Shown: piece by piece, positions 36,643 to 42,279 of the stretch
Layout: the number at the start of each line of letters is the position of its first letter
Numbering within the stretch: the stretch's first letter is position 1
From: Methanosarcinales archaeon
GTDB lineage: Archaea; Halobacteriota; UBA148; JAUWXC01
DNA length: 64,000 bases
Reading direction: 5' to 3'
Assembly: GCA_026016205.1 (NCBI GenBank)
Contig: CP061209.1
Span: 243,469 to 307,468 of the forward strand
The notes under the pieces: model-generated
Database searches by the model: none
What the model saw: only the letters and a program-made list of their open reading frames with translations
Told to the model about the DNA's origin: nothing
Translations under genes and position numbers: made by a program

Positions 36643-38961
36643 TTGAAGAACTCTAAATGCGAAAAGCTTCTTATTTATGGAATTATCCAAGGTGTCGGAT
36701 TCCGTCCATTTGTCTATAGGCTCGCCCATGAATATGGGCTGAGTGGGTATGTTCTTAACTTTGGAAATGGCGTGGAGGTCCTGATCGAAGGGGATGACAG
36801 GCAAATAGATGGGTTTCTGCATGACTTGAGGATGAAAAAGCCGTTGCTGTCCAGGATAGATCACATCGAGATTGAAACGGTGCCCAGAAGAAATTTTAAC
36901 GACTTCACGATAAGAAGGAGTGAAAATAGCGATACAATCGGGTCTTCGATAATTCCTCCGGATATCTGCATCTGCGATGAGTGTCTCGATGAGATGTTCG
37001 ATCCAAATAACCGCAGATATTTCTATCCTTTTACGGTGTGCACCAACTGCGGCCCAAGGTACACATCGGTTTCATACTTACCATACGACAGGGAGAACAC
37101 GACGATGGGTGACTTTCCTCTCTGTGAGTCGTGCAACGAGGAGTACACCTCGCCGATGGATAGGAGATATCATGCACAACCGACTTGCTGCAGCGATTGC
37201 GGACCGAAAACGATGCTGTATGACGGTGAGAGAAAATTGATCTGGGAAAGCGACAGGTATGCTGCAATCGGCTGGGCGTTAAAGCTTCTCAATAGGGGGA
37301 AAATTATCGCTATCAAAGGAGTCGGCGGAATCCACATAGCAGCAAAGGTCACCGATGACGCCCCCCTGTTAAGACTGCGAGAGAAACTAGGGAGGGAGCA
37401 GCAGCCGTTCGCGGTGATGACGCGGGATTTGCTCACGGCAAGGGATTTCGCACTGATCAATCAAACCGAGGAGGATCTTCTGACCAGTTACAGAAGGCCG
37501 ATAGTCGTATTGGAGAAAAGCGATGAATACCATCTCTCAGAACTCGTTGCACCAGGGCTGCACACCATCGGCGTGATGCTGCCATACACAGGCCTCCATC
37601 ATTTGTTGTTCAGAACACTCGAAGAGCAGACGTGCGTGATGACCAGCGCGAACCTGCCAGGAAGGCCGATGGCAAAGAGCAATGCAGAGGCCTTTGAAAA
37701 ACTAGATGGAATCGTGGATTATTATCTGCTCCATAATAGAAGAATCGCAAACCGGACCGATGATACCGTTGTGAGGGTTGTTGGCAGCAGAACGAACTTC
37801 ATGCGAAGGTCGCGGGGCTATGTCCCTGAGCCAATCGTCCTGCCGTTCTCCACAGAGGCGGATGCACTCGGAGTCGGCGCAGAGCGGAATGTTACTCTAA
37901 GCATCGTGCACGGCGATAGGATATTTATGTCCCAGTATATCGGAAACACGAAAAAAATAGGGACGCTTCAATATCACAACGAGGTTGCGGAACATCTGAA
38001 GAAGTTGACGGGCATATCGCCCGATACATACGGTTGTGACCTTCATCCCTGGTTCAATACGACGCGTTATGCTATGGAAAATGCAGACACCGTAAAGGTG
38101 CAGCACCACCATGCACATCTCGTCTCACTTATGGCGGATAATGAATTGCCCATCGACTCCAAGATCATGGGCATCGCCATCGACGGCGTTGGCTATGGTC
38201 CAGATGGCAGTATCTGGGGAGGGGAGGTAATAATGGCAGGCTATGATGGTTTTACGCGATGCGCGAGCCTTGAAACCCAGCCAATGCCTGGCGGCGATCT
38301 CGCTACGTATTATCCTTCCCGCATGGTCCTGGGAATCCTCAGCAAGGTCTTAGATGATGATGAACTCATAAAGGTGGGCCTGCAATTCAAACATGAAAAA
38401 GAAAAACAGATCATCATCGAGCAGCTGAGACGAGATGTTAATGTAGTGGACACGACAAGTACAGGGCGCGTCCTGGATGCCATTTCCGCACTTTTAGGCA
38501 TCGCATATTACAGGAGTTATGAGGGCGAGCCTGCGATAAAATTGGAGAGTGCCGCCAGGGGCGGGAAGTGTGTGCCCGATATCCCGATAAAATTCAAAAC
38601 GGAGGATGGGCGAAAAGTGCTCGATACCACGCAGATTGTGCTGAGCGTTTACGAAAATCTGAATGCACATTCAAAAGCAGATATTGCATTTTCTGTAGAA
38701 GATGCCATTGCAAGTGGTCTTGCCGAACTCGCCATAGATGCTGCCAAAAAGGCAGGAATAGAGACGATTGGAATCAGCGGCGGAGTCGCATATAATGCAC
38801 ACATAATCACAAAAATACAGGAGGCCGTTGAAGGGCACGATTTTAGATTTATCAGACACGACAAGGTGCCTGCCGGCGATGGCGGAATATCCCTCGGGCA
38901 GGCAATCGTGGCGAGTTTCATAGTAAATAGGACTGAGAGCTATGGAGGGGGAGGCAAGTGA
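36643..38961 (+). CDS. hypF: carbamoyltransferase HypF
   Basis: 772 residues from a TTG preceded by GAGGTGG. Order: acylphosphatase domain (GIIQGVGFRPFVYRLA, about 13-95), two zinc fingers (CICDECLDEMFD...CTNCGPRY; CESCNEEY...CSDCGP), YrdC domain (about 195-385), and Kae1-like domain with HHHAHLVSLM and the metal/ATP loop ISGGVAYN. Makes carbamoyl-AMP and transfers it to HypE. The last codons include the sequence repeated at 39512, after a possible mobile insertion. Confidence 0.96.
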   Translation: MKNSKCEKLLIYGIIQGVGFRPFVYRLAHEYGLSGYVLNFGNGVEVLIEGDDRQIDGFLHDLRMKKPLLSRIDHIEIETVPRRNFNDFTIRRSENSDTIGSSIIPPDICICDECLDEMFDPNNRRYFYPFTVCTNCGPRYTSVSYLPYDRENTTMGDFPLCESCNEEYTSPMDRRYHAQPTCCSDCGPKTMLYDGERKLIWESDRYAAIGWALKLLNRGKIIAIKGVGGIHIAAKVTDDAPLLRLREKLGREQQPFAVMTRDLLTARDFALINQTEEDLLTSYRRPIVVLEKSDEYHLSELVAPGLHTIGVMLPYTGLHHLLFRTLEEQTCVMTSANLPGRPMAKSNAEAFEKLDGIVDYYLLHNRRIANRTDDTVVRVVGSRTNFMRRSRGYVPEPIVLPFSTEADALGVGAERNVTLSIVHGDRIFMSQYIGNTKKIGTLQYHNEVAEHLKKLTGISPDTYGCDLHPWFNTTRYAMENADTVKVQHHHAHLVSLMADNELPIDSKIMGIAIDGVGYGPDGSIWGGEVIMAGYDGFTRCASLETQPMPGGDLATYYPSRMVLGILSKVLDDDELIKVGLQFKHEKEKQIIIEQLRRDVNVVDTTSTGRVLDAISALLGIAYYRSYEGEPAIKLESAARGGKCVPDIPIKFKTEDGRKVLDTTQIVLSVYENLNAHSKADIAFSVEDAIASGLAELAIDAAKKAGIETIGISGGVAYNAHIITKIQEAVEGHDFRFIRHDKVPAGDGGISLGQAIVASFIVNRTESYGGGGK

Positions 38962-39534
38962 TATGAGAAAAATATCGGGTGATTTGACGCTGAGCAAGGA
39001 CATGCTGTTCAGGGAAGGTATTGAGGTCGAGGGAGATATCCTGGGTGAGTATGATCTCACCGTGTTTGGGGATATCGAGGCACGGAACATCGAGGTGCGA
39101 AACATCAAGGCACATAACATCAAGGCACGCGACGCCAAGGTATGGGACATCGATGCACATGATATCGAGGTATGGGACATCGAGGCATATAACATCGAGG
39201 CACGCGACATCAAGGCATTGGACATCGAGGCACGCGACATCAAGGCAGGGAATATCGAGGCACGGAACATCGAGGCGCACAACATTGAGGCACGGAACAT
39301 CAAGGCACGCGACATCGATGCACATGACATCAAGGCAGTGGATATCAACTACTATTCGTTTTGCATCGTACATACTAGCATCCACTGCAACAACATTGCT
39401 GGGAGGAGAGAGAACGCGTTTCATCGTGCACTTGACGGAATCGTAATAATTGGAGAGGGGGAGTGACACAGCCAGAAAAGCGTTGTGGATTTACTCGAGC
39501 TAGGCGATTGCGGCGAGTTTCATAGTAAATAGGA
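38910..39534 (+). repeat. 23-bp direct repeat of the hypF 3' end, flanking a 580-bp insert
   Basis: The 23 bases at 38910-38932 (in hypF codons ASFIVNR) recur exactly at 39512-39534, just before the Tas-like gene; weaker similarity extends about 10 bp further left. Between the copies lies only the repeat-protein gene 38963-39466. This is the layout of an insertion into, or duplication of, the hypF 3' end. The downstream copy could read as a vestige of a second hypF tail ending in a stop. Confidence 0.75.
38963..39466 (+). CDS. five-residue-repeat beta-solenoid protein
   Basis: 167 residues from the ATG at 38963, after GGAGGGGGAGG. A 40-residue N-terminal cap (ISGDLTLSKDMLFREGIEVE) leads into about 18 tandem five-residue repeats of the form [N/D]-I-[E/K]-A-x (about residues 45-130), then a cap ending ALDGIVIIGEGE. 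The DNA shows a matching 15-bp tandem repeat (GACATCGAGGCACGC type). Such proteins probably form a right-handed solenoid as in bactofilin or pentapeptide proteins. No function known. It overlaps hypF's end in the longer frame. Confidence 0.75.
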   Translation: MRKISGDLTLSKDMLFREGIEVEGDILGEYDLTVFGDIEARNIEVRNIKAHNIKARDAKVWDIDAHDIEVWDIEAYNIEARDIKALDIEARDIKAGNIEARNIEAHNIEARNIKARDIDAHDIKAVDINYYSFCIVHTSIHCNNIAGRRENAFHRALDGIVIIGEGE

Positions 39535-39542
39535 GATAGAAA

Positions 39543-40385
39543 ATGACAGAAACAACTGAAGAATTGAAGCTCATGGTGAGCACCTACTACGCGTTCCAGA
39601 AGGAACGCATACAGACGGGCAACAGGATCAAGGCGCTCGAGAGGACAGGCGTCGCGAAGTCGCGGGCTGTAGATTTGCATGAGCACCTAGACGAGGAGCT
39701 TAAAAGAATTGAAAAGTGGATAGTAGATAAGGTGGAGGACCAGCTCGAGGGCGTGGACATCTACAATGCCTGGCTCAGACACGTCCCAGGCGTGGGTCCC
39801 ATGCTGGCGGCCGGCCTGATCTCAGTGATAGATCCGATATCCGAGGTCGAGAAGCCGTCGAGCCTGTGGAAGTATTCCGGTCAGGATGTCGTGGACGGGA
39901 AAGCCCCAAAAAGGGTGAGAGGTCAAAAAGTGACGTGGAACCCGTTCGCAAGGACGCTGTGCTGGAAGTTGGGTGACAGTTTCGTGAAGGCCGGTGGTTA
40001 CTACAGGAAGGTCTATGACAGGGCGAGGGTGCGAGAGGATAACAGGGCGCCGTTCAAGGTCCCCGTCGAAGATGCACAGGGTTACCTACTCGCCGAGAAA
40101 ATCGGAAATATCAAGAAGGGTGAGCTGATCGGCAAGGAGAACTTCAGCAAGTTCAAGAAGCAGGCGAAGGGCATGGACGATGTGCTCGTGACGCTGACCG
40201 ATCTCCACAAGTTCAACAGGGCCAAGAGGAAGGCCGTGAAGCTCTTTATCGCGCACCTCTGGGCGATCTGGAGGGACCTCGATGGCCTACCGACCAGGGT
40301 GCCGTATGTGGTGGAGAAGCTGGGGCACAAATTAATTCCTCCTCCTACAGTGGAGCAGCTGAAGAAGGTGCCTGAGAAGCCATAG
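39543..40385 (+). CDS. Tas-like protein: Nop/IS110-type RNA-binding fold, no nuclease domain
   Basis: 280 residues. Residues 1-75 are a long charged coiled coil. Residues 78-160 hold a helix-hairpin-helix-like HVPGVGPMLAAGLISVID, then PSSLWKYSGQDVVDGKAPKR and WNPFARTLCWKLGDSFV, matching IS110-type Transposase_20 and also the Nop domain of box C/D RNP proteins. Residues 162-222 are a lysine-rich insertion; 226-260 (RKAVKLFIAHLWAIWRDLDG, LPTRVPYVVEKLGHK) complete the fold. There is no N-terminal DEDD catalytic domain, RuvC or HNH, so it is unlikely to be an active transposase. The guide-like array starts inside its stop region on the same strand, which points to a TIGR-associated (TasA-type) protein. 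An orphan IS110 fragment is the main alternative. Confidence 0.8.
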   Translation: MTETTEELKLMVSTYYAFQKERIQTGNRIKALERTGVAKSRAVDLHEHLDEELKRIEKWIVDKVEDQLEGVDIYNAWLRHVPGVGPMLAAGLISVIDPISEVEKPSSLWKYSGQDVVDGKAPKRVRGQKVTWNPFARTLCWKLGDSFVKAGGYYRKVYDRARVREDNRAPFKVPVEDAQGYLLAEKIGNIKKGELIGKENFSKFKKQAKGMDDVLVTLTDLHKFNRAKRKAVKLFIAHLWAIWRDLDGLPTRVPYVVEKLGHKLIPPPTVEQLKKVPEKP

Positions 40386-40884
40386 GGCTACGAAGTCCAA
40401 TAAATTGGTGCGAGCCGTTGAAGATATGAAAACCATAATAGATGTGTGAGCTACACTAATAACGAATCCCATTAAAAAATTGCGAGCTATGTTATCTCTG
40501 AACTCCACTATGTGCGAAGCCATACAACATATTGAAATCCACCATCAGGTCGCGAGCCACGATATTAGTGAAACCTAGAAAAGATTTGCGAGCAAAAAAA
40601 GACTGAAACCCAAAAATGTCATGCGAAGCCATGATATGACATGAAATCCATGAGAATATCGCGAGCTAATAAGTACATGAAACCTATAAATGATGTGCGA
40701 ACCAGAGAACATATGAAGCCCAAAACTCTTTGCGAGCCATAATTATGATGAAATCCATTAATAACTCGTGAGCTATCAGAAGCAGGAAGCCAAAAATAAG
40801 CGGGCGAGCCATAGTACCCGTGAGATCCAGAGAAGATTTGCGAGCCAACTAAGCCAATGAAACCCAAAATAAGCGTGTGATGCC
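40374..40884 (+). repeat. TIGR-like dual-spacer guide array, 14 units of ~36 nt
   Basis: Motif A (consensus GYGAGCY, longer form GCGAAGCC) starts at 40374, 40410, 40446, 40482, 40514, 40552, 40588, 40623, 40661, 40697, 40732, 40768, 40804, 40840 and 40877: steps of 36, 36, 36, 32, 38, 36, 35, 38, 36, 35, 36, 36, 36, 37. Motif B (consensus T-GAAAYCCA) lies midway in each unit at 40392, 40428, 40464, 40500, 40534, 40570, 40605, 40643, 40679, 40715, 40750, 40786, 40822 and 40859. A-to-B spacers are 10-12 nt, mostly 11; B-to-A spacers are 10 nt except 6 and 9. Spacers are unrelated apart from two near-duplicates. Both motifs carry a GA step as in box C/D kink-turns. It resembles no CRISPR. Confidence 0.9.
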
Positions 40885-41013
40885 AAGGACCGTTGCTTAC
40901 AGCCCCTATAAACGATTCTCCTGCCTTTACGGAGGTGCTGTCGCGTAACTCCTCCCTCCCTATTAGGGTGAAAATTAATATTTGAGTACAACGATTATCA
41001 GGATAGGGGTTTT
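40885..41013. other. 129-bp flank after the array
   Basis: Non-coding by eye. Contains a hairpin CTCC...GGAG (about 40918-40934) and an AT-rich stretch AAAATTAATATTTG (40971-40984), which would be TATA-like for a leftward transcript across the array. It may therefore be an array terminator, or a leader if the array is transcribed from the minus strand. Confidence 0.35.
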
Positions 41014-42279
41014 TTGTGGTTGGTTGGAGGTGGCAGAGATTCAGAGTATCGAAAACAGGACTGCCGCTATTACGAAAATGATGCCACAGACTGCGGCCAC
41101 AAGTCCGATTATTACCAGGATATCGCTGATGTAGAGGAGTGCCTAGCGCTCTCCAAGTTCAAGATGAAGCGCGTCATAGGAACTCCCGACTTCTTCGGGA
41201 CCGAGTTCTCCAAGCGCTGGGAGCGCTCCGACCAGCATGAATGGGTTTGCAGCTGTGAAAAATGCGGCCATTCGGCGCCCCTGACTTTCGACTTCATCCG
41301 GAAGGCAGATTCGTTCTATTACGGCTGCCCTGAATGCGGCGCGCTCATAGATACGCTTGAAGGCTCCTGGCAGCCACAGAATCCGGACGGAGCCACCAGG
41401 GGTTATCATGTCACTCAACTCATGGCCTCATGGATAAGCGCTGATGAGATAATGAAGAAGAAGACCAATTATTCGCCGTCCAAGTTCGCCAATGAAGTTC
41501 TGGGCATCGAGTTCGAGGGAGCGAAGCGCCCTATCTCGCCGACCAAGCTGCTTAACTGCTGCGTCACAGACGTTGCAGGGTGGCGCTCTGCATTCGAGCG
41601 CATCTCCATCGGCGTTGACTGGGGCAACGTCTCCCATTACGTTGTACTCGGCCTGTCAGAAGGGGCCTATTACATCGTGGACTTCGGCATCTGGAACGAC
41701 CCGGATGTTGCAGCTCACGCCAATCATTTACTCGCGCTTGTGCGCGCCCGGTATCTGGACCGGAAACCCCCTATCGTGATGGACTCCGGATACGGCAAGG
41801 CGCAGAATCAGATCGTATTCAGGGCGTTCCCACGGTGGGCATGGGCATGTTTCTACGGAAGCAATACCTTGCTGAAGCCTCAATTCGAGACAATCAGAAG
41901 CGTAAGTGGCGCGCCCCTAGATCCTTCGGATTATCAATATCACGTCCACATTCATCACGGATCTCTCTGTGAGGAAGTTACAGCTCTCCTGGATGGAGGC
42001 AAGGTGAAGTTCTGGCGAGGGGCGGATGCGCTGGACAGCACGTCAGCGCTTCGGTCATTCATCGACAACCTAGCCCTCGTGGATGTCAATGTAGTGGAGA
42101 CCACCATGGGCACCAGGCGCAGGTGGGTTACGACACCGGCCCATTACTTCTCGGCGCTTCTGTTTGCCTATGTAGGGCTGCAGAAAGAGAAGGACGAGGA
42201 TTGGAGAAACGTCCACTCAATGTTGAACAGGGGGGGCCAGGAGAGGGATGAATACGAAATCCCTCCCATTGGGCCGTGA
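41014..42279 (+). pseudogene. phage terminase large subunit (GpA-type), ATPase part missing
   Basis: The open frame of 421 codons starts at a TTG; convincing terminase homology begins only at about 41150 (LSKFKMKRVIGTPDFFGTEF). Present: zinc ribbon (CSCEKCGH...CPECGALI, about residues 88-120 of the frame), linker YHVTQLMASWISADEIM, and the RNase H-like nuclease domain with ISIGVDWGNVSHYVVLG, IVMDSGYGKAQ and a C-terminal HYFSALLFAYVGL. The N-terminal packaging ATPase (Walker A/B, about 200 residues) is absent. So this is a 5'-deleted remnant of a head-tail virus or provirus. Confidence 0.75.

What the first reader, a model, noticed from the sequence alone, without database searches (positions are those of the whole stretch)
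40374..40884. Regular 36-nt array of two alternating motifs with two variable spacers per unit: a TIGR-like guide RNA array
Seen directly: 14 units plus a terminal half unit, step 36 nt (range 32-38). Each has GCGAGCC-type motif A, an 11-nt variable segment (10-12), GAAAYCCA-type motif B, and a 10-nt variable segment. A-to-B spacers: atagggctac, gttgaagatat, acactaataac, atgttatctct, atacaacatatt, acgatattagt, aaaaaagact, atgatatgacat, aataagtacat, agagaacatat, ataattatgat, atcagaagcag, atagtacccgt, aactaagccaat. The only constancy within units is at the motifs. The dual-spacer 36-nt architecture, GA steps like box C/D kink-turns and a Nop-like gene directly upstream match what is known of TIGR-Tas systems. 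I infer that the array encodes dual-guide RNAs; the motif sequences and this archaeal, virus-adjacent setting may be new.
Basis: partly seen in the sequence, partly recalled or inferred. Interest (0 to 1): 0.97.

Follow-up and report, generated by a model that had tools for sequence, protein, structure and literature searches.

The report
Archaeal TIGR-TasA dual-guide RNA array
This is a genuine TIGR-Tas locus (an array of 36-base dual-guide RNAs plus its RNA-binding TasA protein) sitting beside a broken virus gene in an archaeal chromosome; the system was described in 2025, so it is a new example of a known thing.

Summary
The gene upstream (39543-40385) is a Nop-domain Tas protein without a nuclease domain (TasA). 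It scores 179 bits against NCBI's TIGR-Tas model (cut-off 100), matches solved TasR (E 7e-32) and TasH, and its model's best PDB matches are TasH and TasR. The same repeats at the same spacing occur in 58 stretches of 51 viral contigs; 44 of those stretches also encode a relative of this protein, and a wrong-spacing control found none. The claim that motifs or setting may be new therefore fails: TIGR-Tas is published, archaeal viruses included. No other Tas was found in 394 genomes of the phylum, and the locus abuts a truncated terminase, so it was probably brought in by a virus. No natural target exceeded controls. A by-product bears on how arrays change: identical single spacers recur within viral arrays with a different partner, and one near-identical pair of viral arrays differs by a replaced spacer.

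The parts
39543..40385 (+). tasA: nuclease-less Nop-domain TIGR-associated protein, 280 aa
   Evidence: NCBIfam NF052498 TIGR_Tas_endo 179 bits, cut-off 100; phmmer PDB 9mty TasR E 7e-32 and TasH E 4e-16; Foldseek best 11 hits all TasH/TasR; alignment to TasR starts at TasR residue 113, so the N-terminal RuvC is absent
40373..40885 (+). TIGR array: 14 units (edge repeat 9-10 nt, spacer A, loop repeat 9 nt, spacer B) plus a terminal edge repeat; the first edge repeat overlaps the last codons of tasA
40373..40382 (+). first edge repeat (TGAGAAGCCA), inside the tasA reading frame just before its stop codon
   Evidence: the closest relative L108 also overlaps its array with the tas stop codon
40876..40885 (+). 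terminal edge repeat (TGTGATGCCA), after which the array ends
41014..42279 (+). 5'-truncated terminase large subunit (PHROG 675, profile positions 170-560 of 576), remnant of an integrated viral element
   Evidence: 83% identical over 377 aa to an intact copy at C1:196571-198166 of the same genome

Best explanation
A TIGR-TasA system of the published dual-repeat type, carried into an archaeal chromosome by a tailed virus and left beside a terminase remnant. Shown here: array anatomy, protein family, pairing of the two in many viral contigs, viral-remnant context. Inferred from Faure et al. 2025: the array is transcribed with or just after tasA, cut by a host RNase within the edge repeats into 36-nt tigRNAs, and held by a TasA dimer that grips the UG and CCA boxes of the edge and loop repeats. 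Spacer A then pairs with one DNA strand and spacer B with the other at an 18-20 bp site reading 5'-A-rc(B)-3'. Having no nuclease, TasA would bind and bend or block the target rather than cut it. The most likely use is interference between mobile elements by blocking transcription or replication; whether it still acts in this host is unknown.
For: Exact 9-9-9-9 unit with UG...CCA boxes and 18-nt steps. TIGR-Tas NCBIfam model far above cut-off. Sequence match to solved TasR and TasH and fold match to the same. The repeat pattern is found in 58 viral stretches from 51 contigs, 44 of them with a relative of this protein nearby; 587 full units parsed, 515 exactly 36 nt. Wrong-spacing control 0. 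The closest relative, L108 (38% identity), is in a viral contig with a PHROG 675 terminase and a portal gene. The window terminase fragment is of the same PHROG. No other Tas found in 394 genomes of the phylum. Archaeal host markers: proteasome-activating nucleotidase and archaeal GAPDH.
Against: No RNA data. No natural target above control in the own genome or in 1.8 Mb of fetched DNA. No terminator-like site just after the array. Unit lengths are somewhat less regular than in viral arrays (8 of 14 are 36 nt versus 515 of 587), although the two sets were parsed differently and the same-parser comparison (7 of 10) is not significant.
Confidence: 0.95

Rival explanations
1. A genuine TIGR-TasA locus by descent, but a dead viral relic: no longer expressed or without remaining targets.
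For: Beside a truncated terminase; another decayed terminase fragment of the same kind elsewhere in the genome. One unit has a 5-nt spacer B and six units depart from 36 nt. No target found.
Against: tasA is an intact 280-aa frame that keeps all 12 columns invariant in the six-protein alignment. Repeats deviate from the consensus about as little as in viral arrays (window segments 0.37 and 0.57 mismatches per motif, viral mean 0.40).
Confidence: 0.35
2. An array of ordinary archaeal box C/D guide RNAs for ribosomal RNA methylation, with a Nop5-like protein.
For: Nop-domain ancestry is shared; both RNA kinds carry two guide stretches per unit.
Against: The array has only one RUGAUGA box C match and two CUGA box D matches, none at unit period. 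No relevant Rfam family matched the stretch. The protein matches TIGR-Tas models and TasR/TasH structures.
Confidence: 0.01
3. An IS110-type transposase with its bridge RNA, or a CRISPR-like array.
For: Weak IS110 matches: Pfam Transposase_20 E 1e-3, below cut-off; NCBIfam IS110 26.7 bits, cut-off 140. Tandem array form.
Against: No N-terminal recombinase domain ahead of the Nop domain. The array is a 36-nt unit with two 9-nt repeats and two 9-nt spacers, unlike a bridge RNA or CRISPR repeats of 25-36 nt.
Confidence: 0.01
4. A chance or coding repeat, for example tandem codons of a protein.
For: Nearby ORF 38942-39466 does carry a 15-nt coding repeat.
Against: The array step is 18/36 nt with variable spacers; shuffles give 0.36 matches versus 9, and the same pattern with wrong spacing gives 0 viral matches versus 58.
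Confidence: 0.005

Closest known systems
TIGR-TasA / TasR dual-repeat systems (Faure et al. 2025, PMC12045711)
   Same: Two alternating short repeats with UG and CCA boxes, 9-nt spacers, 36-nt unit, adjacent Nop-domain protein, association with viruses including archaeal ones
   Different: No nuclease domain (as in published TasA); own spacers; chromosomal copy in a small archaeal genome next to a terminase remnant; unit lengths 32-38
TIGR arrays with the same repeats in IMG/VR viral contigs (L091-L148), closest Tas L108
   Same: Same edge and loop repeats and 9-nt spacing; Tas 38% identical; same terminase family (PHROG 675) in the L108 contig; array overlaps the tas stop codon in L108
   Different: Different spacers; L108 has arrays on both sides of tas; viral rather than chromosomal
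Salicola phage CGphi29 TasH (PDB 21kl, 9vzx and others)
   Same: Nop-domain core, 27.5% identity; fold match
   Different: TasH carries an HNH nuclease that the window protein lacks
IS110 RNA-guided transposases (IS621, PDB 8wt6)
   Same: Distant fold similarity of the RNA-binding domain
   Different: No recombinase domain, no bridge RNA; family score far below cut-off

Membership tests
TIGR-Tas (dual-repeat type) | Nop-domain Tas protein of the TIGR family | tested here: met
   NF052498 179 bits versus cut-off 100; TasR and TasH matches by sequence and fold
TIGR-Tas (dual-repeat type) | Two alternating 8-12-nt repeats with about 9-nt spacers, 36-nt unit | tested here: met
   14 units, 9-9-9-9 layout
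TIGR-Tas (dual-repeat type) | UG and CCA boxes in both edge and loop repeats, as reported for TasR | tested here: met
   Edge UGCGAGCCA and loop UGAAACCCA, with CUA, CAA or CCG variants
TIGR-Tas (dual-repeat type) | Array adjacent to the tas gene | tested here: met
   Array starts within the last codons of tasA
TIGR-Tas (dual-repeat type) | Typical truncated terminal edge repeats followed by a rho-independent terminator | tested here: inconclusive
   First and last edge repeats are variants rather than clear truncations; no terminator-like site just after the array. This is a typical, not obligatory, feature, and archaeal terminators differ
TIGR-Tas (dual-repeat type) | Processing into 36-nt tigRNAs bound by Tas | not testable with these tools
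   Needs small-RNA sequencing
TIGR-Tas (dual-repeat type) | Tandem-spacer DNA targeting, one spacer per strand | tested here: inconclusive
   No target above mismatched-pair control in own genome or fetched loci; biochemistry not testable
TasA subtype | Nop domain without RuvC or HNH nuclease | tested here: met
   280 aa; alignment to TasR begins at TasR residue 113 and to TasH at residue 68; no nuclease domain family in Pfam or NCBIfam beyond the Tas model itself
Archaeal box C/D sRNA | RUGAUGA and CUGA boxes per guide | tested here: not met
   One and two sporadic matches in 513 nt
IS110 transposase | Score above IS110 family cut-off, with an N-terminal recombinase domain | tested here: not met
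   26.7 bits versus cut-off 140; no N-terminal domain present
CRISPR array | Single repeat of about 25-36 nt with spacers of similar size | tested here: not met
   Repeats are 9 nt and of two kinds

The most novel reading that the evidence does not exclude
TIGR arrays change by turning over half units: a single 9-nt spacer is copied or replaced within an array while its partner stays. In viral arrays with these repeats, identical spacers recur within an array in the same half (5 A-A, 3 B-B, 0 A-B in 2,420 unit pairs) with a different partner, versus 0 A-A and 0 B-B in 105,357 between-array pairs. Two near-identical 12-unit viral arrays (L133, L141) differ by one replaced spacer B, plus a point change. 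The window array shows the same (spacer B12 contains B14, with different A spacers). This would be a first handle on how TIGR arrays are built, which the discoverers call an enigma.
Probability: 0.35. Interest if true: 0.6.

Novelty: new member of a known kind. Interest (0 to 1): 0.36.

Why it matters
It adds a chromosomal archaeal TasA locus to a system known since 2025, and shows that its repeat class is common among uncultivated viruses (51 contigs). That gives a ready set of loci for studying natural targets and array change. The half-unit recurrence makes the open question of how TIGR arrays gain and lose guides testable by comparing closely related viruses.

Tried and rejected
Own-genome target search: for all units, A followed by rc(B) and the reverse order, gaps 0-2, up to 3 mismatches; the counts equal those of mismatched A/B pairs. 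The same search for 541 distinct units from window and viral arrays against 1.8 Mb of fetched DNA was also null. Exact searches of two window units in all viral contigs gave 1 and 5 hits in contigs without the window's terminase or Tas, roughly what I would expect by chance. Complementarity or similarity between paired A and B spacers: none beyond control. A second TIGR array in the own genome: none. Rfam: no relevant match. Direct genome-contig searches found no named relative, so the host could not be named. The six-sequence alignment was too divergent for pattern-based scanning. Synteny with same-genus genomes was uninformative because the fetched loci are short. Array decay measured by unit length is not robust to the parsing method. 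The AlphaFold model rests on 3 sequences and has low confidence (pLDDT 58), so the fold match only supports the sequence result.

Full report
Observation. The array is real. With the conserved outer bases counted into the motifs, its unit is edge repeat UGCGAGCCA (9 nt), spacer A (9 nt), loop repeat UGAAACCCA (9 nt), spacer B (9 nt); motif starts step by 18 nt. There are 14 units and a terminal edge repeat at 40373-40885. Unit lengths are 36 nt in 8 of 14 and 32-38 in the rest, from a few 10-nt edge repeats and 5-, 8- or 10-nt spacers. A degenerate edge-N9-loop pattern with up to two mismatches matches nine times in the window, all in the array, against 0.36 expected. Nothing else in the 987-kb genome comes near it.

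Protein. The gene at 39543-40385 encodes 280 aa. It matches NCBIfam NF052498, 'TIGR-Tas system RNA-guided endonuclease', at 179 bits (cut-off 100), and IS110 only at 26.7 bits (cut-off 140). By sequence it matches the solved TasR (9mty, E 7e-32) and TasH (21kl, E 4e-16). An AlphaFold model of modest confidence (pLDDT 58) has as its best eleven PDB matches only TasH and TasR, followed by the IS621 and ISCro4 recombinases. The alignment to TasR starts at TasR residue 113, so the nuclease domain is missing: this is a TasA, despite the word endonuclease in the family name.

Known system. Faure et al. 2025 (PMC12045711) describe exactly this: alternating 8-12-nt edge and loop repeats, 9-nt spacers, 36-nt tigRNAs, UG and CCA boxes, a Nop-domain protein next to the array, in phages, archaeal viruses, proviruses and some cellular genomes. 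Every feature testable from sequence is met, apart from the terminator that they call typical.

Relatives. A DNA pattern of three repeats at 9-nt spacing was scanned against viral contigs and returned 58 stretches from 51 contigs. The same motifs at 12/6 spacing returned none. Of the 58 stretches, found by repeats alone, 44 encode a tblastn relative of the window protein. A parser recovered 587 full units from them, 515 of exactly 36 nt. So this repeat class is common in viruses and the motif sequences are not new. The closest relative, L108 (38% identity), has arrays on both sides of its tas gene, an array overlapping the tas stop codon as in the window, and a PHROG 675 terminase and a portal gene in the contig.

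Context. The host is an archaeon by its genes (proteasome-activating nucleotidase, archaeal GAPDH), with a 987-kb single-contig genome and no McrA match; no tool named it. Upstream is a hydrogenase and hyp gene cluster ending in hypF. Downstream is a terminase large-subunit gene (PHROG 675) that lacks its first 170 profile positions. An intact copy, 83% identical, lies at C1:196571-198166 of the same genome near an integrase, without a tas gene or array; a third fragment lies near C1:816-817 kb. No other Tas was found in 394 genomes of the phylum; the weaker matches are long IS110-like proteins or short fragments. Arrival with a virus, followed by loss of most viral genes, is the simplest history (inference).

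Mechanism. Following the published biochemistry, the array would be transcribed and cut within edge repeats into 36-nt tigRNAs. A TasA dimer would use spacer A on one DNA strand and spacer B on the other. From the published 8-nt 3' overhangs and the C-5 rule, I derive that the target reads 5'-A-rc(B)-3' with a 0-2 bp gap. TasA cannot cut, so it would act by binding, bending or blocking. Interference between mobile elements is the likeliest use; an aid to integration, or a dead relic, remain open.

Targets. Neither order of spacer pairs matched the own genome beyond mismatched A/B controls, and 541 distinct units from all arrays gave no excess against 1.8 Mb of fetched DNA. Two exact scans of viral contigs gave hits consistent with chance. 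The natural targets remain unknown, as in the paper.

Array change. In the viral arrays, exact recurrence of a 9-nt spacer within an array is far above the between-array rate (8 within 4,840 same-half comparisons; 0 A-A, 0 B-B and 2 A-B between arrays over 105,357 unit pairs), always in the same half; exact whole-unit duplicates were removed before this count, so the partner differs in each case. Arrays L133 and L141 are identical in 10 of 12 units; in one unit spacer A is kept while spacer B is replaced by a sequence of different length, and in another one base differs. In the window, spacer B12 contains the whole of B14 while A12 and A14 differ. This suggests that halves of units turn over separately. 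It was found after the fact and in few cases, so it is offered as a lead.

Verdict.

Noticed in passing
L091-L148 (viral contigs); L133 and L141 in particular: Single spacers recur within TIGR arrays in the same half with a different partner; one near-identical pair of arrays differs by one replaced spacer B.
   Followed up: partly
38893-38932 and 39494-39534: A 41-nt direct repeat (88%) of the hypF 3' end recurs just before the tasA start, flanking the 38942-39466 ORF; possibly an insertion or recombination scar.
   Followed up: no
39056-39350, in ORF 38942-39466: 15-nt tandem coding repeat giving a pentapeptide/decapeptide-like protein of unknown role.
   Followed up: no
own genome C1:193401-198214 (L011): Integrated element with a tyrosine integrase and an intact terminase, 83% identical to the window's fragment; a third fragment near C1:816-817 kb; no PHROG 156 portal in the genome.
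   Followed up: partly
L022 9299-9414 and 11346-12075: A viral contig with TIGR-like arrays of a different repeat type (GAGCGAGCCG / GAGCGCRCCG, 18-nt steps) on both sides of its Tas gene.
   Followed up: no
L151 7631-7651: Exact 19-nt match with a 2-nt gap to window unit 5 (A then rc(B)) in a viral contig that seems to encode a thermosome-like protein; about one hit is expected by chance.
   Followed up: partly
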